In this document: positions 29,344 through 58,796 of the stretch, piece by piece | Layout: each line of letters begins with the position of its first letter | Position numbering within the stretch: the first letter of the stretch is position 1 | DNA from: Candidatus Manganitrophaceae bacterium | GTDB lineage: Bacteria; Nitrospirota; Nitrospiria; SBBL01; Manganitrophaceae | Direction: 5' to 3' | Assembly: GCA_016200325.1 (NCBI GenBank) | Contig: JACQEZ010000011.1 | Span: 372,001-436,000, forward strand | DNA length: 64,000 nt | The notes under the pieces: model-generated | The model's input: only the letters and a program-made list of their open reading frames with translations | Database searches by the model: none | What the model was told of the DNA's origin: nothing | Made by a program: the position numbers and the translations under genes

Positions 29344-29690
29344 GGGGGCGATCGGATTCGACGGGGATAAAGAGGTTAAGGAACGCATGCCGAGGTCCCA
29401 TTGGGCTCGTTAAACAAATGGGAAAAACATAATTGCTAATGAACAATTAGCTCTCGCTGCCTAAACGCAGTGACATCGACTTTCCGTCGCCTGTGCGGGG
29501 GGAAGATGCCAGATAGCAGGCTGGCCTGATTCTTCGCCTTGGGGAATTGGGTGAGATCTTTTGAGGCTAGCGGAAGAGGGAGCCTGTCTCTGGGCGACCT
29601 TCAACGCGAATTCCAAATCAGAGACTAAGCATGTAGCGGTCTTTTTCTGAGTGTCTTCGGACGCGGGTTCAATTCCCGCCGCCTCCACCA
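29344..29690 (+). ncRNA. ssrA: Transfer-messenger RNA (tmRNA, SsrA)
   Basis: 347 nt. The 5' end (gggggcgatcggattcgacg) is the conserved tmRNA start, and the 3' end has a T-arm (gcgggttcaattcccgc) followed by cgcctcc and an encoded ACCA. The acceptor stem pairs over 7 bp with G3-U70, the alanyl-tRNA synthetase identity pair. The tag frame at 29420-29464 reads GKNIIANEQLALAA then TAA; the LALAA ending is the usual protease signal. The resume codon appears to be GGG (Gly). smpB lies just upstream and a terminator follows. Confidence 0.97.
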
Positions 29691-50449: not shown

Positions 50450-50598
50450 GATCGATCGCCCTTATTTCTTTCCCCACAGAAGATCTGATCCGATACGCTT
50501 TGCTCTCCTGAAAATTTCTTGACATCTACCGATCCGGTATGATACCGAATACCGATTCTGAATTCGGTGCGCCGATGCGAGCCAAAACAGGAGGGAAG

Positions 50599-51207
50599 AT
50601 GCGAAGACGACCGATCGTTGGAACGGTATGCGTCCTTTTAGTTATTGCGTTGCTCGCCGGGGTGAACCTGGCGGAGGCAAAAGAGGGATTTTATCTCGGC
50701 GGGGAGCTTCTCTACAACAGCATTGACGGGGACTTCGATGGAACGAAGGGACCGGACTCCGACAACGGCGGCGGAATCGGCCTCATCCTTGGCTATGGCT
50801 TGACCCCGGGATTCTCACTTGAAATTGATTGGAATGCGTCTGTCCATACCGCCGAGGTCGTCCGCGGGGCAACCCCTTCCGATGCGGGGCTGGGGGCGTT
50901 CATTCTCGCATTAAAATACAACTTTCTCTCTCACCAACCGCTTCAGCCGTTCCTGCGGGCCGGTATTGGAGGATATGCCTTCATCGTCAAAGATCCGCGG
51001 GGGGATTTAAAGCTGACCGGATCGGGGTTCGATCTCGGCGGAGGGGTCGATTATTATGTCGCTCCTCACTTCTCGATCGGCGCCGGCGTCAGCCGAAGGT
51101 TTATCGAATACAGAAAAATTGACTTCCTGGGAAGAAAGGCGAATCTCAGCCCGAAAATCTCGGGAGACACAACCTCACTTGAGGTCGATTTTATCTATCA
51201 CTTTTAA
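50599..51207 (+). CDS. Small outer-membrane beta-barrel protein (OmpA-like porin domain)
   Basis: 202 residues from ATG 50599, chosen for AGGAGGG upstream. The signal peptide ends NLAEA. The mature protein is about 180 residues of alternating strands: FYLGGELLYNSI, IGLILGYGLTPGFSLEIDWN, FLRAGIGGYAFIV and the aromatic C-terminus VDFIYHF typical of BAM substrates. It is an eight-stranded barrel by pattern. It ends 5 bp from the end of the DUF4105 gene on the other strand. Confidence 0.85.
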   Translation: MRRRPIVGTVCVLLVIALLAGVNLAEAKEGFYLGGELLYNSIDGDFDGTKGPDSDNGGGIGLILGYGLTPGFSLEIDWNASVHTAEVVRGATPSDAGLGAFILALKYNFLSHQPLQPFLRAGIGGYAFIVKDPRGDLKLTGSGFDLGGGVDYYVAPHFSIGAGVSRRFIEYRKIDFLGRKANLSPKISGDTTSLEVDFIYHF

Positions 51208-51212
51208 TCATT

Positions 51213-53135
51213 TTAAAAATAAACCTGGAGGGTGACCAACCCCTCGTTTTGAAAATCCCGTCGGTTGAGCTCCTGCCGCCGGTTTAATTCCAGCCGCAAC
51301 GACAGATCTTGCAGCAGCGTTACCCGCTGCTGCAGCGACATCTTTAAATCGTGAGAATGTTCTCCCAGCGGATAGGTCAGATAAGTTGAAAAAAGGTGGA
51401 GCTTCCACCGCGCCGCGAGGTCGGCCAGCAGCCCGACGGTTCCGCCGACGCCGGCCCGGTAGTCGGGATCGAAAAATCCGCCGTAGTTCCCGTCGAGCTC
51501 AATTAAAAAATAGATCAGCTCCCGCCGAAGCAGATGCCCCTCGAGCGCACTTCCCGTCCCCATATTGAGATCGAAATAGCGGCAGTCGTGGCAGCGGTTA
51601 CTTGGAAGTGTCTCCAGACTCGCGCTGATCTTCCAAGAGGGTTTTTTAAAGAGCGGATCGAGCGGAACGAGCGAAATGATATCGGCGAATGCGAGGGAGT
51701 GGAGGGTGACCCGCTCCTGCTGGTTGTAATATCGAATCCGGGCATTCATCAGCTCGATCTGCGCGCCGGAGGTATATCCGATGTCGTCATCAAGCAGGTC
51801 CTGGTAGGCGGGACGGATCGCAAGTTCTTCAAACGGATCTCCCTCCCGCCAGCCGAGCCCGAGGCCGACGCGCGCCGTGTCGTGTCCCGTTTCTGGAGGG
51901 GCCGTCACCGGCGTAAATGTGACCGGAGGGCTCTGCACCCGCAGCGCGCTTCGCTGCTGAAGGAGCAGCCGCTGCTTTCTTTTAATCTCATCCAAATCGA
52001 CCTCTTCCTTGGCCGTTCGATAGCGGGTGTAATCGTAAGCAATGTCGAGAAGCAGCGCCTGGCGATCGACCGGAAGGCCGTCGAAGAGCTCCGGGGTCAT
52101 CGTTGTCCCCCGGTCGATCTCCGAGAGAACCCGCCGCTCCTCGGGTGAGAGGAGGGCCCGTTTTTGACGAATTTGAGTCCCGCGGGAGGGGCGATAGGTC
52201 ATCTCTTCCACCAACCCCGAAACCGACGCGATGCTGCGGACCGTGTCGGCGGGGATCGTCCAATATCGAAAAGCGTCGGCGAGGTGGAGCGTCGGCCGGG
52301 CCACCTCCAGCAGCGGCAGAAGCTGATACGAGCAGTTTTGGGTAAAGAAATAGTAGGTGAAGGTGGTGTTCCCTAGCTCCCAGGCATGCATCAACATCCG
52401 GGTGATCTCCTCCTCGGAGAGGTTCAACCGGTATTCCCAGATATCGCGACTCTCCATGTCGCTGTACCTTCGCACCTGAAGATAATAAGGGACGGTGGAG
52501 AAGTTTCCCTTAAAGCCACCGGTAATCCCCCAAACCGCAAAGAGAACGCCATTGTCGGTCGTGACGGTGGCCGCATAGTTAATTGTATAATCAAGAATTT
52601 CAGTTTGTTCGGTCTGGTCTTTCTGATTGATTCGAAAAAGGGTATGGCCAAACATCGATGAAGGATTATTCATGTAAGCTGATGGAAAGATCAAACTAAT
52701 CGATTTTGCATTTAGCGCGGCATACCAGGCCTTAAAGCGCTCGCATGTTTGTTCAGGAAGACGCTTCGGGTCAAAGCCGAGGGCCTCCTTCAGCCAATGA
52801 TAGCGCGCGATAAAAGCGCATTGAGCCGGCTGCTTTGACGTGCCGACGAGTTCATCGGAAAAGAACTTTGCCAATGTCGTTTCTAATTCCGATTCAGGGT
52901 TTGTCTTCCCATCGGGCGCTAAAAAGAAGCTGTTGTCACTTGCATCACTGGTAAAGCCGCCGAAAAAGGTGGTGTGATAGTGGATCAATAAAAGCCAGTA
53001 GCGATTCTGGGAGAGTCCTTTTTGGCGGGCGACGTTAATCAATTCCTGGAGATAATCAGGGTTTTCCGCTGCGAGAAGTGGTGTTGCACCGAGAAGAAGC
53101 CATAGAAGGAGAAAGATCGTACTCCATCTCAGCAT
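51213..53135 (-). CDS. DUF4105-type exported protein A (periplasmic hydrolase-like domain plus outer-membrane barrel)
   Basis: 640 residues; signal peptide to about residue 22 (LLLGATPLLA). The conserved domain (about 25-300) carries YMNNPSSMFGHTLFRI with His164 and TQNCSYQLLPLLEV with Cys268. His first and an Asn-Cys motif 104 residues later is the order in circularly permuted papain-like (LRAT/NlpC-P60) enzymes; that activity is inference. The remaining half alternates polar and hydrophobic residues and ends LVTLQVYF, with terminal Phe as in outer-membrane barrels. Its paralog is at 55465, and a DUF3015-type gene lies 118 bp upstream. Confidence 0.82.
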   Translation of the reverse strand: MLRWSTIFLLLWLLLGATPLLAAENPDYLQELINVARQKGLSQNRYWLLLIHYHTTFFGGFTSDASDNSFFLAPDGKTNPESELETTLAKFFSDELVGTSKQPAQCAFIARYHWLKEALGFDPKRLPEQTCERFKAWYAALNAKSISLIFPSAYMNNPSSMFGHTLFRINQKDQTEQTEILDYTINYAATVTTDNGVLFAVWGITGGFKGNFSTVPYYLQVRRYSDMESRDIWEYRLNLSEEEITRMLMHAWELGNTTFTYYFFTQNCSYQLLPLLEVARPTLHLADAFRYWTIPADTVRSIASVSGLVEEMTYRPSRGTQIRQKRALLSPEERRVLSEIDRGTTMTPELFDGLPVDRQALLLDIAYDYTRYRTAKEEVDLDEIKRKQRLLLQQRSALRVQSPPVTFTPVTAPPETGHDTARVGLGLGWREGDPFEELAIRPAYQDLLDDDIGYTSGAQIELMNARIRYYNQQERVTLHSLAFADIISLVPLDPLFKKPSWKISASLETLPSNRCHDCRYFDLNMGTGSALEGHLLRRELIYFLIELDGNYGGFFDPDYRAGVGGTVGLLADLAARWKLHLFSTYLTYPLGEHSHDLKMSLQQRVTLLQDLSLRLELNRRQELNRRDFQNEGLVTLQVYF

Positions 53136-53210
53136 ATAATGAAAACCATTAGTTCTAAAATGGTGTTTTCCGCAGTCAAAAAAGAGAATTGAAAAAAGAC
53201 CGACATAGGC

Positions 53211-53243
53211 AAAAAGACCCCCGGCCGCGGCGGCCCGGGGGGG
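53211..53243 (-). terminator. Rho-independent terminator after the minus-strand DUF3015-type gene
   Basis: On the minus strand a very GC-rich stem (ccccgggccg pairing with cggccgggg) is followed by TCTTTTTG. It separates the DUF3015-type gene from the DUF4105 gene downstream, so the latter may need its own promoter or read-through. Confidence 0.8.
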
Positions 53244-53253
53244 CAGGAACAGA

Positions 53254-53745
53254 TTAGTGGCTGGAAACGAAGTCAGAGAGTGCCGGGTGTGCCGACATTT
53301 CCTGATTAAGCGCGACCAGCATCTCCCCAGAGGTGGTCTGTGCGGTGGGGAAGATTGCCGTATATTTCTCTTGGGTCAGCGTGTAAAATTCACTCCGGTG
53401 TTCTGCCGGAACGCCGAGCAAGGAGGCCAGCGAGGTAAGATGCTCTCCCCGACCCTGCGCCATTTCTTGTGAAAGGTTCTCCATATTGGCGCTGGCGAAA
53501 GCATCTAATTTCTGATCATTTTTTACAACACCATCTTGCATACAGCCCAAGGTTCCAGTTGAAATCCCAAACGTTTGGCTCCCGAATGACGCATTTGTGG
53601 TTGAAGCCAACACTTGCGGAACAATACCTTTCTGCCCCTTGAAGATCATGGTCCCAAAGCCGCAGCCAGGCCCCGTATCCGAAGCGAAGCTGTGAGAAAC
53701 AGGAATCAAAGCGAACACAACTGCCGCATAGATCAATTTCTTCAT
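53254..53745 (-). CDS. DUF3015-type small exported protein 1
   Basis: 163 residues; signal peptide to SHSFA. Family text: GPGCGFGTMIFKGQKGIVPQ, LASTTNASFGSQTFGISTGT, LGCMQDG, and NLSQEMAQGRGEHLTSLASL. Two cysteines in the mature part could form a disulfide. DUF3015 proteins are periplasmic and of unknown function. It diverges from two more copies on the plus strand at 54254 and 54841. Its last residues are SSH, like the third copy's. Confidence 0.85.
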   Translation of the reverse strand: MKKLIYAAVVFALIPVSHSFASDTGPGCGFGTMIFKGQKGIVPQVLASTTNASFGSQTFGISTGTLGCMQDGVVKNDQKLDAFASANMENLSQEMAQGRGEHLTSLASLLGVPAEHRSEFYTLTQEKYTAIFPTAQTTSGEMLVALNQEMSAHPALSDFVSSH

Positions 53746-53846
53746 TATCGATTCTCCTTATTAAGTTTGGTGAATGTTACGATTTGGTATTGGTCAGATC
53801 TGGATCGGGAACAAACGATCCGTGCTCGCAATAGGTTCACTTAAAA

Positions 53847-53876
53847 AGGCTAGCATTTGCTTATTGGCAGTGTCAA
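53847..53876 (-). promoter_or_regulatory. Candidate promoter for the minus-strand DUF3015-type gene
   Basis: On the minus strand TTGACA (53876-53871) and TAGCCT (53852-53847) are 18 bp apart, with a TG one base before the second hexamer (extended -10). The -10 is poor. Confidence 0.35.
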
Positions 53877-54135
53877 GATAGCCAGCAAAACTGCCATAGC
53901 TAAACGATTAAAGGGATATCTTCTTTTAGAATTTACCGTCTAATGCCGTATTGCAATGCGTTCGGCGAGATTAGTGTTTGGTCATCTTCTCCAAAAACAG
54001 ATTTTTAGTCCAAGCCGCGTTTATTTCTACTGAGCTACTTCTAGATGAATGATATTTCGATTTCGCGCACGGCGTATAGAACTACGTTTCCGATGCAGTA
54101 ACGTTGCTGAATGCATTGATAATGATGGATTTATA

Positions 54136-54164
54136 TTGACAACTATTGACACCTACTGTATATA
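54136..54164 (+). promoter_or_regulatory. Consensus sigma70-type promoter for the plus-strand DUF3015 / DUF4105 genes
   Basis: TTGACA at 54136-54141 and TATATA at 54159-54164 are exactly 17 bp apart. A second TTGACA at 54146 overlaps the spacer. Transcription should start near 54171, giving a leader of about 80 bases before ATG 54254. Confidence 0.7.
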
Positions 54165-54253
54165 CCGGTGGAACCACCTTTCCTACAGAATACAGAGACC
54201 AAGATCGAAAAATCTGGCGACACAAAGATGAATAATAATCGAGGAGGTTACTG

Positions 54254-54751
54254 ATGAGAAAGCTTCCCGTAATAGCGGTTGCAATGGTCCTTGCGTTGAC
54301 AGTTGTTTCCTCTGCCCTTGCTGCTGGCTATGGAGCGGCAGGGTGCGGATGGGGTGGAAAAGTAATTAAGCAGAATGATCAGTTGTCTCAGCTCGGTGCC
54401 TGGCTTCTTAATGGCGTCTCTTCGAATCAAACCTTCGCAATGACCTCGGGCACTTCCGGATGTTCGAAACTTGGGATCGTGATGGCTGAAGCGGAACAGA
54501 CCCAGTTCGTAGAAAGCAATTATCAGGGTCTCGCAAAAGAAATGGCGTCCGGCGAGGGAGAAAATATCTATACACTGGCAGGATTGTTGGGTTGCTCGGC
54601 AGAGCAGACAAAAAACTTTGCCTCTTTTACCAAGCAGAATTACGACTCTATTTTTAAGAGTGAACAAAATACCCCTTCCGAAATGTTGGCCTCCTTAAAA
54701 GAAGGTTTGTCCAACGATCCGGTACTTGCCACATCTTGTCAAAAAATTTGA
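54254..54751 (+). CDS. DUF3015-type small exported protein 2
   Basis: 165 residues; GAGGAGG lies before the ATG. Signal peptide to about residue 23 (SALA). The mature text AAGCGWGGKVIKQNDQLSQL, QTFAMTSGTSGCSKLG and LAKEMASGEGENIYTLAGLL matches the family. Cysteines occur in GCGWG, SGC, LLGC and the end (ATSCQKI), two more than copy 1. Next gene is 89 bp downstream and closely related, so this is a tandem duplication. Confidence 0.85.
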   Translation: MRKLPVIAVAMVLALTVVSSALAAGYGAAGCGWGGKVIKQNDQLSQLGAWLLNGVSSNQTFAMTSGTSGCSKLGIVMAEAEQTQFVESNYQGLAKEMASGEGENIYTLAGLLGCSAEQTKNFASFTKQNYDSIFKSEQNTPSEMLASLKEGLSNDPVLATSCQKI

Positions 54752-54840
54752 AATATATGAGGGGGAATATCCTAGGAAAGCCTCTTCAGCATCCTGGATT
54801 TCATAATTGGTCTGACAACCGAATCGTATAGGAGTGTCAA

Positions 54841-55329
54841 ATGAAAAAGTTGATGTTGGCTATTGTTGGTATTTTAATGTTTTCTCCGACTGTGTTTGCC
54901 GCTGGATATGGTGAGGCCGGTTGTGGGCTTGGCTCGTTAATTTTCGGGAGCACACCTGGTTTTGTTCAGATTTTTGCCGCCACGACAAATGCCTCTACTT
55001 ATTCGCAAGGGTTCGGAATTACATCAGGTACTTCGAACTGTGACGCAAAGGGGTTTGACGTATCACAGGTAGAGCAGGAGAAGTTTGTGGCGCACAATTT
55101 CTCTGGTCTGGCCAAAGAAATGGCGACGGGAGAGGGAGAACAACTCGCTACCCTTGCGGGAATGCTCGGTTGTCCTTCCGTCAAGCAGACTCAATTTAAC
55201 GCCACTGCACAACGAAATTATGGGGCAATTTACGCCAGCGACACGACCAGCCCGACTGAAATGTTAACGGCTGTAAAAGCGGTGGTCGCACGGGATCAGG
55301 AACTGTCCACTGCATGTAGCAGCCACTAA
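54841..55329 (+). CDS. DUF3015-type small exported protein 3
   Basis: 162 residues; signal peptide to FAAGYG. Mature text AGCGLGSLIFGSTPGFVQIF, ATTNASTYSQGFGITSGTSN and LAKEMATGEGEQLATLAGML. Its Cys pattern (GCGLG, SNC, MLGC, TACSSH) is like copy 2, while its TTNAS segment and SSH end are like copy 1. A strong terminator follows at 55348, so the DUF4105 B gene downstream is partly insulated. Confidence 0.85.
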   Translation: MKKLMLAIVGILMFSPTVFAAGYGEAGCGLGSLIFGSTPGFVQIFAATTNASTYSQGFGITSGTSNCDAKGFDVSQVEQEKFVAHNFSGLAKEMATGEGEQLATLAGMLGCPSVKQTQFNATAQRNYGAIYASDTTSPTEMLTAVKAVVARDQELSTACSSH

Positions 55330-55347
55330 GCCGCTATTATCTTCAAA

Positions 55348-55402
55348 GGGGGATACGATCGCTTTGTTTGGTATGTCCAAGAGAGATCGTATCCCTTTTT
55401 TT
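55348..55402 (+). terminator. Rho-independent terminator after the DUF3015-type tandem pair
   Basis: An 11-bp perfect stem (gggatacgatc pairing with gatcgtatccc) closes a loop of about 24 bases and is followed by seven T residues. Confidence 0.88.
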
Positions 55403-55464
55403 GTCCATTTCCGATCAGAAGATATCCCTTTACACGTTGCATGATTCGGAGATAGCGCAAGCGC

Positions 55465-57387
55465 ATGTCAAAACAGATAATCGTGATTCAGCTGATGATT
55501 CTCGTCTGGCTCTTCGCCTCCAATATCTTCGGCGCGAGTCCTGATCAAAATGCGTATCTCAATACTCTGATTAAAGAAGCCCTCCAAAAAAATCTCCCTC
55601 AAGACCGATACTGGCATCTTTTACTCCACTATAAAAAGACCACTTTCGGAAAGATTGAAAGTCAAGAAGATGCTCCGGCCTTTTTCAATTCGCCGTACGG
55701 CAAATCCGATCCCCAGGCGGAGCTTATTGCGACTTTGGAATCGTTCTTTAAAACGTCGGAAACAATCGGGTCAAATCAGTCACACCCTCAGTGTGATTTC
55801 GCCGCCCGTTACAAATGGCTGAAGTCCCAACTCTCATTTGATCCCGCGAAACTTCCGGAACAGCGATGCGAACAATTGGAGACGTGGCTCAAAGACCTCA
55901 ATCCGGAAAGAATCACCCTGGTCTTCTCCACCTATTTTATGAACAACCCGGCATCCATGTTTGGCCATACGCTCCTCCGAATCGATCGGAAACGGATCGG
56001 TGCGGACCAGAAACTCCTCAATTACGGCGTGAATTATGCCGCAAACGCAGACACGACGAACGCTTTAATGTATATGCTGAAAGGGGTCTTCGGCGGATTC
56101 AAGGGGACCTTCTCCGTCTTTCCCTACTACTACAAGGTTCAGCAGTACAGCAATTTGGAGAGTCGAGACCTCTGGGAATATGAATTGAATTTCACGGAAG
56201 ATCAGATAAACTCACTTTTGCTCCATCTCTGGGAGTTGGGCGGGAATTATTTCAATTATTATTATTTTCAAGAGAACTGCTCCTATCACCTTCTTTCATT
56301 ATTAGAGGTAGCAAACCCCGATCTTCATTTAACGGATCAGTTCCTTTTCCAGGTCATTCCAGGAGATACGGTCAAGGCATTGATCCCCTACGATACATTG
56401 ATTGCAAAGAGGGTATACCGGCCTTCTCTCTTGAGTCAAATGAATAACAAGCGTCTCCAAATGACCGAACAAGAGAAAGAGGTGTTTTATCGACTGGCGA
56501 AAGATCCGTCTCAGATTGATAAGGAAGACTACCGGAATCTCAGCGTGTCATCGAAGGCCTTGGTCTTGGACGCCTATTTAGATTATGCACAATACCAGAA
56601 TATGAAAAAGACAAGGACGGCTGAATCGATCGACAAAGAGACAAGAAAGATCTTATTGGAACGAAGTAAACTGGATTATCGCCGGACCGATCCCCCCGAG
56701 CTCGTTCCGTTTTCTACTCCGCCCGAGCTCGGACATGGAAGCGCTCAGGTTCGATTTGGAGAGGGTGCGAATAAAAAAGAGACGTTCGAGGAGATCTCAA
56801 TCAGACCCGCTTATCATGACCTTCTGGCCAAAGATGTCGGTTTTGGTAAAGATTCTCAAATCTTGTTCTTGGAGACAACGGTTCGATATTACAATGAATC
56901 AGACAAAACCAAGCTCGAGCGCTTTAAGCTGCTGGATATTGTTTCATTAACCCCTTATGATCCATTGTTCAAAAAGATCTCATGGCGACTGAGTCTCGGA
57001 GTGGATACCCCCAAAGACCTTCATTGCGGTTACTGTAATACATACGAAGGGAAGTATGGGCTCGGAATCACTTATCGTCCCAATCCTTTCTCGTCGATTC
57101 TTCTCTATTCATTCATTGATGTCGAATTGGAACTATCGAGACATCTCGATCAAGATTACCGGTTTGGTGGTGGTCCGACGGTCGGGACATTAATTGACAT
57201 CACCGAAGCTTGGAGGGCTCAGATCAGCGGAAGCTATCTAAATTTCCCGCTGGGAGACCGATCGGATTATTATGCTGTTTCGGTCAACCAAAGATATGCG
57301 CTGAACCAGAATTTAGAGCTCAGGGCTGAATTCAATCTGACAAGCGGCTGGAGGGAGGGGGTGGTGATGGTGAGTTATTATTTCTAG
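55465..57387 (+). CDS. DUF4105-type exported protein B, paralog of the gene at 51213
   Basis: 640 residues, the same length as copy A. Signal peptide to about residue 24 (SNIFGAS). His168 lies in NNPASMFGHTLLRI and Cys272 in QENCSYHLLSLLEVANP, again 104 residues apart. The ESRDLWEYELNF and YGVNYAANA segments match copy A. The C-terminal half is strand-rich and ends VVMVSYYF, the outer-membrane barrel signature. A CGYC motif near residue 519 aligns with CHDC in copy A. The gene is less GC-rich than the core genes. The HExxH gene follows after 47 bp. Confidence 0.82.
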   Translation: MSKQIIVIQLMILVWLFASNIFGASPDQNAYLNTLIKEALQKNLPQDRYWHLLLHYKKTTFGKIESQEDAPAFFNSPYGKSDPQAELIATLESFFKTSETIGSNQSHPQCDFAARYKWLKSQLSFDPAKLPEQRCEQLETWLKDLNPERITLVFSTYFMNNPASMFGHTLLRIDRKRIGADQKLLNYGVNYAANADTTNALMYMLKGVFGGFKGTFSVFPYYYKVQQYSNLESRDLWEYELNFTEDQINSLLLHLWELGGNYFNYYYFQENCSYHLLSLLEVANPDLHLTDQFLFQVIPGDTVKALIPYDTLIAKRVYRPSLLSQMNNKRLQMTEQEKEVFYRLAKDPSQIDKEDYRNLSVSSKALVLDAYLDYAQYQNMKKTRTAESIDKETRKILLERSKLDYRRTDPPELVPFSTPPELGHGSAQVRFGEGANKKETFEEISIRPAYHDLLAKDVGFGKDSQILFLETTVRYYNESDKTKLERFKLLDIVSLTPYDPLFKKISWRLSLGVDTPKDLHCGYCNTYEGKYGLGITYRPNPFSSILLYSFIDVELELSRHLDQDYRFGGGPTVGTLIDITEAWRAQISGSYLNFPLGDRSDYYAVSVNQRYALNQNLELRAEFNLTSGWREGVVMVSYYF

Positions 57388-57434
57388 TTCATGATATTTG
57401 CAACGAGAAGTTCTCTTCATTTAGTGAGAGCCAA

Positions 57435-58079
57435 ATGTTAAGCCGGTCCCTTTTGTTACTGATCGTATTCTTCTGTCTCAATTCAAATTCTATCGATGCG
57501 AAAGAGTCGTATTGGGAGGAGCATCATATCACATTATCGGACCTCACGGAGGAGCAACAGCAGACGCTGGAGTTAACTATTAATCAATTAAAAACATTAG
57601 AGTCGTCCGAGTTGAAGATTGATAAAAAGGTCTATCGGCGGCTGAGTCGTTTCAAGGAATTATTTGGGATCTCCTTTCACGGCAGAGAAATCGCAGAGTG
57701 GTTATTGACCCGAATGCGAAAAGTTTCGTATGGCAATAGCTGGACCGTCGCCGTGAACCAGAGAGGGGGAGATTTCATGGTTGGTGATATCTTCTTTACG
57801 AAGCTCGGCACATTGGAGCGGCTCTATCTTCTAATCCATGAGGCGCGGCATTCCGATGGAAAGGGATATCCGCATGTCAAATGTCCGAAGGGGTTTAGGA
57901 CGATTTCAGCGACGCAGCCGGATCTCGATTTGGAAGAAGAGCCTGCCTGCGACGACGGTCCGGAGGGGGCCTATAGTTTCCAAGCGGCATTTTTATTCGA
58001 ACTTTTTGCCTATGGAATTTTTGACCAGAAGGAAGTAGGACTTCTCTATAACAGCTCTATTTCAAGAGTTCTCCGATAA
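57435..58079 (+). CDS. Exported HExxH (zincin-like) protein of the DUF4105/DUF3015 locus
   Basis: 214 residues; signal peptide to about residue 22 (NSNSIDA). The key motif is RLYLLIHEARHSDGKGYPHV, a complete HExxH (residues 135-139) preceded by hydrophobic residues, as in zinc metallopeptidases. A following acidic region with Cys150 and Cys172 (HVKCPKG, EEPACDDGPEGAYSFQAAFL) may give the third ligand. No family is recognised. It starts 47 bp after DUF4105 B and is the last gene of the run. Confidence 0.75.
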   Translation: MLSRSLLLLIVFFCLNSNSIDAKESYWEEHHITLSDLTEEQQQTLELTINQLKTLESSELKIDKKVYRRLSRFKELFGISFHGREIAEWLLTRMRKVSYGNSWTVAVNQRGGDFMVGDIFFTKLGTLERLYLLIHEARHSDGKGYPHVKCPKGFRTISATQPDLDLEEEPACDDGPEGAYSFQAAFLFELFAYGIFDQKEVGLLYNSSISRVLR

Positions 58080-58094
58080 GTAATCTCTCCTCAG

Positions 58095-58796
58095 CTATCC
58101 TCTTTTCAGCACCGAATAAGCCGGTGGGTGGACGCCGTTTCCGTTTACATTCCCATTGCCGTTTCCGTTTCCGTTGACGCTCTTCCGGTTGGTGCACTGA
58201 ACCACCTTCCAGTAGTTCAGCGGTTTGACACTTCTTTTTTTGTCCACTGCCAGAGGCTTCCCATTCAACAGGGTGGTGAGGTCCAGATCGGCCTGAAAAC
58301 CGAGTTTTTTCGTCAGGGGGGAAATCACCTTTTCGCAGGTGGAGATGAACGGATTTCCGTTCTTAAAGTGGTTGAGGAGAACGATCTTTCCGCCCGCTTT
58401 GCAGACGCGGATCATCTCGGAGATGACCTGGTGCGGATCGGGGACCGCCGTGATTACATAGGCGGCGAAGACGGCGTCGAACGAATTGTCCGGAAAGGAC
58501 ATCTTCATCGCGTCCATTTTCAGCAGTTGAATGTGGTTCAGCTGGTATTGGCGCACGCGCTGGCGCCCTTTCTCCAGCATCGGCTCGCAGAAGTCGATCC
58601 CGGTGACCCTGCAGTTCCTCGGATAAAAAGGAAGGGAGAGTCCGGTCCCGACGCCGACTTCCAGAATGGCATCGCTTCCCCGGATATTTAAAAGCTGAAT
58701 GGCGTCCGCACGCGATTGGTGAAACCATTTTCCAAAGACAAGATCATAGAAGCCGGAAAAGACAGTATAAGCCCGCTCGATACTTTTCGCATCCAT
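58095..58796 (-). CDS. Class I SAM-dependent methyltransferase (PmtA/UbiE-like) with Asn-Gly repeat tail
   Basis: 233 residues. Motif I is DAILEVGVGTGLSLPFYPRN, followed by VTGIDFCEPMLEKG and the FDAVFAAYVITAVPDPHQVI block. AYTVFSGFYDLVFGKWFHQS at the N-terminus matches phosphatidylethanolamine N-methyltransferase PmtA-like enzymes. The C-terminus is an unusual Asn-Gly tail (NGNGNGNGNVNGNG) before HPPAYSVLKRG. The lipid role is inference. Confidence 0.82.
   Translation of the reverse strand: MDAKSIERAYTVFSGFYDLVFGKWFHQSRADAIQLLNIRGSDAILEVGVGTGLSLPFYPRNCRVTGIDFCEPMLEKGRQRVRQYQLNHIQLLKMDAMKMSFPDNSFDAVFAAYVITAVPDPHQVISEMIRVCKAGGKIVLLNHFKNGNPFISTCEKVISPLTKKLGFQADLDLTTLLNGKPLAVDKKRSVKPLNYWKVVQCTNRKSVNGNGNGNGNVNGNGVHPPAYSVLKRG
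58135..58178. repeat. Hexanucleotide microsatellite inside the methyltransferase gene
   Basis: About seven imperfect copies of a 6-base unit (ccgttt on the plus strand) encode the Asn-Gly run. The unit is a multiple of three, so length changes would keep frame. Confidence 0.85.

What the first reader, a model, noticed from the sequence alone, without database searches (positions are those of the whole stretch)
51213..58079. Exported DUF4105 / DUF3015 / HExxH locus with duplicated parts
Two 640-residue DUF4105-type proteins, three DUF3015-type small exported proteins and one exported HExxH protein lie together around a divergent AT-rich control region. All six have signal peptides. Two look like a hydrolase joined to an outer-membrane barrel and one looks like a zinc metalloprotein. 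The composition suggests an envelope-acting system (processing, toxin or defence). Any function is inference.
Basis: partly seen in the sequence, partly recalled or inferred. Interest (0 to 1): 0.8.

Follow-up and report, generated by a model that had tools for sequence, protein, structure and literature searches.

The report
Outer-membrane acyltransferase-like operon, two copies
Two old, related operons sit back to back here, each coding for a papain-like (probably lipid-acyl-handling) enzyme built onto an outer-membrane barrel together with small secreted DUF3015 proteins; the pairing is conserved across several bacterial phyla and its job is still unknown.

Summary
The window holds two head-to-head operons: A (DUF3015a–LnbA, minus strand) and B (DUF3015b–DUF3015c–LnbB–HExxH, plus strand). 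DUF4105 is now Pfam Lnb_N, named after the Bacteroides lipoprotein N-acyltransferase, but both proteins fail the NCBI Lnb model and the genome has a normal Lnt. LnbB is modelled with high confidence as a catalytic domain (invariant His168/Cys272) on a 12-strand barrel.

The grouping is not accidental. In 296 Nitrospirota genomes, 106 of 111 full-length Lnb genes have DUF3015 directly upstream on the same strand. All 12 close HExxH relatives, from three phyla, lie beside an Lnb gene. A covarying hairpin separates DUF3015 from Lnb in most loci, and an alpha/beta hydrolase usually lies downstream.

A and B are old, separate lineages, not a recent duplication. Sister genomes keep A or B at the same site; only this genome keeps both.

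Most likely this is an outer-membrane lipid- or lipoprotein-acyl module: an acyltransferase or phospholipase with DUF3015 partners made in excess. Toxin and defence readings have no support. Substrate and partner contacts are untested. It is a new variant of a known kind.

The parts
51213..53135 (-). LnbA: Lnb_N (DUF4105) catalytic domain + DUF7842/7843 + DUF7840 barrel, 640 aa
   Evidence: 198 bits Lnb_N, 195 bits DUF7840; Nitrospira-type clade; 75% identical to the gene at the same site in four same-genus genomes
53218..53241 (-). GC-rich hairpin followed by TCTTTTT between DUF3015a and LnbA (terminator-like)
   Evidence: -22 kcal/mol for the stretch, but z only -0.8 in this very GC-rich copy; the position is conserved in relatives
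53254..53745 (-). DUF3015a, 163-aa exported protein, one Cys pair
   Evidence: 168 bits
53746..54253 (.). divergent AT-rich region between operons A and B (40% GC)
54254..54751 (+). DUF3015b, 165-aa exported protein, four Cys
   Evidence: 146 bits; the b-then-c order recurs in B-type loci
54841..55329 (+). DUF3015c, 162-aa exported protein, four Cys
   Evidence: 152 bits
55345..55400 (+). long hairpin plus T-run between DUF3015c and LnbB (intrinsic-terminator-like; LnbB would need read-through)
   Evidence: -28.5 kcal/mol, z -5.4
55465..57387 (+). LnbB: papain-like Lnb_N domain + 12-strand outer-membrane barrel, 640 aa
   Evidence: AlphaFold2 model pLDDT 90.4; barrel matches Tsx, EstA, NanC, OMPLA
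55966..55968 (+). catalytic-type His168 codon of LnbB (GH motif)
   Evidence: invariant in 38 of 38 homologues
56278..56280 (+). catalytic-type Cys272 codon of LnbB (NC motif)
   Evidence: invariant in 38 of 38 homologues
57435..58079 (+). HExxH (HEARHSD) exported protein, 214 aa, putative metallopeptidase of no named family
   Evidence: no family; all close relatives sit beside Lnb

Best explanation
Each operon makes a Sec-exported enzyme that inserts in the outer membrane through a C-terminal 12-strand barrel and holds a circularly permuted NlpC/P60 (papain-like) His/Cys domain at the periplasmic face. From its superfamily the enzyme most likely takes an acyl chain from an outer-membrane phospholipid as a Cys-thioester and either transfers it to a lipoprotein or lipid acceptor or releases it (acyltransferase or phospholipase). 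DUF3015 is a small, disulfide-bearing periplasmic partner, made in excess because a hairpin at the end of its gene ends or processes most transcripts before Lnb. An alpha/beta hydrolase (often a lipoprotein) and, in the B lineage, an exported HExxH protein (a lipoprotein in several relatives) act in the same pathway. Shown by computation: domains, barrel model, conserved dyad, gene linkage, conserved hairpin, age of the two lineages. Inferred: acyl chemistry, periplasmic orientation, DUF3015 excess and partner role, HExxH being a peptidase.
For: Domains and non-Lnb status; invariant His168/Cys272 in 38 of 38; 12-strand barrel model, pLDDT 90.4, with matches to outer-membrane barrels including OMPLA and LpxR; 50 of 51 full-length homologues end in Phe, the other in Trp. 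Published: Bacteroides DUF4105 is the lipoprotein N-acyltransferase Lnb, its sister Tox-Act1 is a phospholipase, and the permuted NlpC/P60 group targets lipids (PMC12994826); LnsA, a lipoprotein N-acylation enzyme, is an NlpC/P60 enzyme with the invariant His/Cys dyad (PMC7387801). Linkage: 106 of 111; HExxH 6 of 6 in Nitrospirota and 12 of 12 close relatives in three phyla. Same-family alpha/beta hydrolase within about 3 kb downstream in 18 of 20 Nitrospira-type loci and adjacent in Nitrospinota and Spirochaetota loci. Hairpin: 49 of 60 DUF3015-Lnb junctions have z at or below -2, against 26 of 166 other co-directional junctions, with compensatory changes at 12 of 13 pairs.
Against: No biochemical data were found for any barrel-bearing member. 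The Lnb equivalog model is far from met (24 and 18 bits against 550). Foldseek and VIA matches cover the barrel only, so the catalytic fold rests on Pfam and published superfamily assignment. The relatives sampled are not independent, so hairpin and linkage p-values are overstated. The window's own A hairpin is not better than its shuffles (z -0.8). No hydrolase gene of the linked family was found in the window; its nearest homologue in this genome is on another contig.
Confidence: 0.5

Rival explanations
1. Peptidoglycan or peptide hydrolase: the papain-like domain acts as a cell-wall endopeptidase held at the outer membrane, with the HExxH protein and DUF3015 as helpers in envelope maintenance.
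For: Canonical NlpC/P60 enzymes cut peptidoglycan (PMC7387801); the HExxH signature suggests proteolysis nearby.
Against: Lnb_N belongs to the permuted, lipid-targeting branch (PMC12994826); no wall-binding domain in Pfam; same-family alpha/beta hydrolase nearby in relatives.
Confidence: 0.15
2. Backup lipoprotein N-acyltransferase: these are true Lnb enzymes that add the third acyl chain, redundant with Lnt.
For: Lnb_N domain with conserved His/Cys; Bacteroides Lnb function known (PMC12994826).
Against: Lnt is present here (351 bits) and in 110 of 113 Lnb_N-positive Nitrospirota genomes; equivalog cut-off not met; the barrel places it in the outer membrane rather than where N-acylation normally occurs.
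Confidence: 0.2
3. Toxin, immunity or defence cassette acting on the envelope.
For: Sister-clade effector Tox-Act1 (PMC12994826); operon B has lower GC (46% against 56%) and is variably present in the genus.
Against: No PADLOC hit; Sec signal and outer-membrane barrel are not effector-like; the DUF3015-Lnb pair is present in most Nitrospira-type genomes, usually with one Lnb copy.
Confidence: 0.05

Closest known systems
Lnb, lipoprotein N-acyltransferase of Bacteroides (NF051878)
   Same: Lnb_N (DUF4105) domain with conserved His/Cys
   Different: Equivalog score 18-24 bits against cut-off 550; here fused to a 12-strand outer-membrane barrel, paired with DUF3015, and coexisting with Lnt
Tox-Act1 / TseH (permuted NlpC/P60 T6SS effectors)
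   Same: Related permuted papain-like branch; phospholipase activity shown for Tox-Act1 (PMC12994826)
   Different: No secretion-system context seen here; Sec-exported, barrel-anchored, chromosomal housekeeping-like distribution
LnsA (with LnsB) of Staphylococcus
   Same: Permuted NlpC/P60 enzyme doing lipoprotein N-acylation with a partner protein (PMC7387801)
   Different: The partner is a CPBP membrane protein in a monoderm; no barrel, no DUF3015
OMPLA (PldA) and LpxR
   Same: 12-strand outer-membrane barrels that act on lipids; barrel superposes (Z about 10-11)
   Different: Their active sites are in the barrel (established knowledge); here a separate domain carries the His/Cys dyad

Membership tests
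Lnb_N / DUF4105 (PF13387) | score above gathering cut-off over the whole domain | tested here: met
   198 and 196 bits against 22.2, positions 2-174 of 175
Lnb_N / DUF4105 (PF13387) | conserved His then Cys of permuted NlpC/P60 enzymes | tested here: met
   H168 and C272 invariant in 38 of 38
Lnb equivalog (NF051878) | score above curated cut-off 550 | tested here: not met
   23.6 and 17.8 bits
Lnb equivalog (NF051878) | replaces Lnt as the genome's lipoprotein N-acyltransferase | tested here: not met
   Lnt at 351 bits in this genome; Lnt in 110 of 113 Lnb_N-positive genomes
Lnb equivalog (NF051878) | N-acylates diacyl lipoproteins | not testable with these tools
   needs biochemistry
Outer-membrane beta-barrel proteins | barrel with C-terminal aromatic residue and signal peptide | tested here: met
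   12 strands 428-639 in a pLDDT 90.4 model, matches to outer-membrane barrels; 50 of 51 end in Phe; hydrophobic N-terminus
DUF3015 (PF11220) | score above gathering cut-off over full length | tested here: met
   146-168 bits against 25
HExxH zinc metallopeptidases | match to a known metallopeptidase family | tested here: not met
   no Pfam or NCBIfam match for the window protein; one distant relative shows a sub-threshold match to DUF6782 putative metallopeptidase, 20 bits against 27
HExxH zinc metallopeptidases | HExxH plus a third conserved ligand | tested here: inconclusive
   HEARHSD plus H147, C150, C172 conserved, but HEARHSD invariance is partly due to the search pattern, and the structure model failed (pLDDT 38)
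Anti-phage defence systems | match to a PADLOC model | tested here: not met
   none for six proteins

The most novel reading that the evidence does not exclude
An undescribed outer-membrane acyl-transfer pathway, spread over Nitrospirota, Nitrospinota, Spirochaetota and Gammaproteobacteria: a barrel-anchored permuted NlpC/P60 enzyme moves acyl chains at the inner face of the outer membrane with excess DUF3015 protein as carrier, acceptor or activator, and with an alpha/beta hydrolase or HExxH protein as the next step.
Probability: 0.3. Interest if true: 0.75.

Novelty: new variant of a known kind. Interest (0 to 1): 0.5.

Why it matters
Two widespread unknown families (DUF3015, DUF7840), an unnamed HEARHSD family and an Lnb-type enzyme are tied into one testable unit. 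No paper in the library searched links DUF3015 to DUF4105. If the acyl reading is right, it would be an acyl-transfer activity located in the outer membrane itself, in organisms that already have Lnt. The conserved hairpin gives a simple prediction, that DUF3015 is made in excess, which RNA-seq can check at once.

Tried and rejected
Structure of the HExxH protein from 6 sequences: pLDDT 38.5, unusable, not searched. No viral contigs encode the HExxH protein or DUF3015a. No PDB sequence relatives for LnbB or DUF3015b alone or for the Lnb and HExxH profiles; only chance-level hits. Rfam: no credible hit for the hairpins. Promoter scan: at chance level. Recent tandem duplication: rejected (40% identity and separate starred clades). 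DUF4105 as an Lnt substitute: rejected. A phylum-wide test in Proteobacteria could not be run, because the tool needs a genome handle as centre; only individual gammaproteobacterial records were read. Catalytic-domain fold matches were not obtained, because the barrel fills the hit lists, so absence there means nothing.

Full report
OBSERVATION. Pfam gives Lnb_N (the former DUF4105), DUF7843 and DUF7840 for both 640-residue proteins, DUF3015 for the three small proteins, and nothing for the HExxH protein. NCBIfam recognises the two large proteins only at 24 and 18 bits as Lnb, cut-off 550. All six have an exported-type N-terminus by hydropathy. The divergent region 53746-54253 is 40% GC.

IS THE GROUPING REAL? 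In 296 Nitrospirota genomes DUF3015 occurs in 116 and Lnb_N in 113; 109 have both, 7 only DUF3015, 4 only Lnb_N and 176 neither (the cross-tabulation was read off the two genome lists). By position, 106 of 111 full-length Lnb_N hits have DUF3015 immediately upstream on the same strand. Some of the five exceptions lie at or near contig ends. Annotated gammaproteobacterial records show the same pair, DUF3015 then DUF4105.

THE HExxH PROTEIN. As a single-sequence query it is found in 6 of 296 genomes, in each case just downstream of Lnb. A scan of 84,980 species genomes with the 6-sequence alignment gave 28 loci. The 12 closest (34-68% identity; Nitrospirota, Nitrospinota, Spirochaetota) all have an Lnb gene within about 2 kb; 9 also show DUF3015, and in the other three the Lnb gene lies at a contig end. 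Of 16 distant relatives (mostly Bdellovibrionota) only one has Lnb nearby. Several of the 12 are the same genomes as. Conserved positions beyond HExxH are H147, C150, C172 and a GAY motif; the invariance of HEARHSD itself is partly built in by the search pattern. Several relatives have lipobox-like signal peptides; the window copy does not. My structure model of it failed (pLDDT 38.5).

THE ENZYME. With 38 homologues, AlphaFold2 gives LnbB mean pLDDT 90.4 and pTM 0.87, with 12 strands in residues 428-639. The barrel matches Tsx, EstA, NanC, NalP, LpxR and OMPLA (Foldseek and VIA-align). Of 51 full-length homologues 50 end in Phe and one in Trp, the usual outer-membrane insertion signature. His168 (in MFGHT) and Cys272 (in ENC) are invariant in all 38, in the His-before-Cys order of permuted NlpC/P60 enzymes. 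Published work places DUF4105 in that lipid-targeting branch, as sister of the T6SS phospholipase Tox-Act1, and reports that Bacteroides DUF4105 is the lipoprotein N-acyltransferase Lnb (PMC12994826). LnsA of Staphylococcus is another NlpC/P60 lipoprotein acylation enzyme (PMC7387801). The DUF4105 paper does not mention a barrel, DUF3015 or Nitrospira in its main text.

NOT A STAND-IN FOR Lnt. This genome has Lnt at 351 bits. In the 296 genomes, Lnt is found in 281, and in 110 of the 113 that carry Lnb_N. So the barrel-bearing proteins add to Lnt and do not replace it.

A FURTHER PARTNER. Downstream of Lnb in Nitrospinota, Spirochaetota, Bdellovibrionota and some Nitrospirota loci lies an alpha/beta hydrolase of one coherent family, often with a lipobox-like signal, GxSxG present. 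In Nitrospira-type loci a member of that family lies within about 3 kb downstream in 18 of 20. In the window it is absent, and the nearest homologue in this genome is on another contig; there the HExxH gene holds the slot.

A CONSERVED HAIRPIN. The 60 bases after DUF3015, before Lnb, fold better than dinucleotide shuffles in 49 of 60 distinct loci (z at or below -2; median -3.7), against 26 of 166 for other co-directional gene junctions in the same loci (Fisher p about 4e-20, overstated because loci are related). In 24 A-type sequences 12 of 13 stem pairs show changes on both sides, 92% of cells pair, and no shuffle matches the covariation score. Copies in Nitrospinota, Spirochaetota and Gammaproteobacteria often end in a T-run, i.e. 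look like intrinsic terminators. In the window the B copy is strong (55345-55400, -28.5 kcal/mol, z -5.4) and the A copy is a GC-rich stem with a T-run but not better than its shuffles. The simplest reading is partial termination or 3'-end protection that keeps DUF3015 mRNA above Lnb mRNA; this is inference.

TWO OLD LINEAGES, ONE SITE. LnbA groups with the Nitrospira-type clade (18 rows, 98/98), LnbB with relatives from its order and with Nitrospinota and Spirochaetota (13 rows, 98/90), the clade that carries the HExxH gene. Among five same-genus genomes, four have only operon A and one has only operon B, at the same place next to the OMP gene and the cytochrome gene, with the methyltransferase gene on the far side where the contig reaches it. 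In an A-only genome the alignment jumps from window 53774 to 58101 with 187 bp between, so about 4.3 kb (operon B) is absent there. LnbA (75%) and LnbB (75%) diverge about as much as the flanking genes (66-86%), so both were probably present in the genus ancestor, with loss of one or the other later; each of the six genomes keeps at least one. Operon B has lower GC (46%, and 52% in the sister, against 56%), which suggests it entered the lineage from outside. The B-only sister is a fragmented assembly whose contig ends inside LnbB, and HExxH was not found in it.

MECHANISM. Shown by computation: domains, barrel, dyad, linkage, hairpin, lineage. Inferred: the catalytic domain faces the periplasm, uses Cys272 to form an acyl-thioester from outer-membrane phospholipid, and transfers or releases it; DUF3015 in excess is acceptor, carrier or activator; the hydrolase or HExxH protein acts next. 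I put 0.5 on the lipid-acyl reading as stated, 0.2 on a redundant true Lnb, 0.15 on peptidoglycan or peptide hydrolysis, 0.05 on toxin or defence.

NOVELTY. The enzyme domain is of a known kind; its fusion to a barrel, the DUF3015 partnership, the covarying hairpin and the HEARHSD partner were not found described in the library searched. I rate it a new variant of a known kind. The organism is Nitrospirota; same-order matches are titled Nitrospirota and Ca. Manganitrophaceae, so a Manganitrophus-like host is likely, but this is inference.

Noticed in passing
window 53903-53924 and 55417-55438: A 22-nt inverted pair (91% complementary, AGAAGATATCCCTTTA core) lies once in the divergent region and once just upstream of LnbB; a possible shared regulator site.
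   Followed up: no
window 50539-51207: The outer-membrane beta-barrel gene convergent with LnbA is only 32-71% identical to its counterparts in same-genus genomes while flanking genes are 66-86%; some sisters carry two copies.
   Followed up: partly
L064, L065, L067, L077, L136: Lipoprotein-like genes (a PEGA domain in the one tested, L065) sit next to tandem DUF3015 genes without Lnb, or directly upstream of divergent Lnb genes.
   Followed up: no
L094-L109: A wider HEARHSD...HxxCP...ACD...GAY protein family, unnamed in Pfam and NCBIfam, occurs mostly in Bdellovibrionota away from Lnb.
   Followed up: partly
G163:C17, G251:C1, G189:C4, G289:C2, G199:C1; also G139:C71, G159:C59, G253:C42: Shorter Lnb_N proteins (frames of about 360 and about 420 aa) occur as separate paralogues not linked to DUF3015.
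   Followed up: no
L111 (plasmid pJ9-3, Acinetobacter baumannii): A barrel-type DUF4105 gene lies with an ADC beta-lactamase gene between ISAba1 copies, without its DUF3015 partner; on another Acinetobacter contig (L113) the order DUF3015-DUF4105-ampC is kept.
   Followed up: no
L062 2574-4301, L070 7995-9728: A 575-577-aa exported-type protein follows the B-type operon in two related genomes; the L062 copy has a weak ceramidase match; if real, another lipid enzyme.
   Followed up: no
window 29344-29690: tmRNA gene with tag ANEQLALAA.
   Followed up: no
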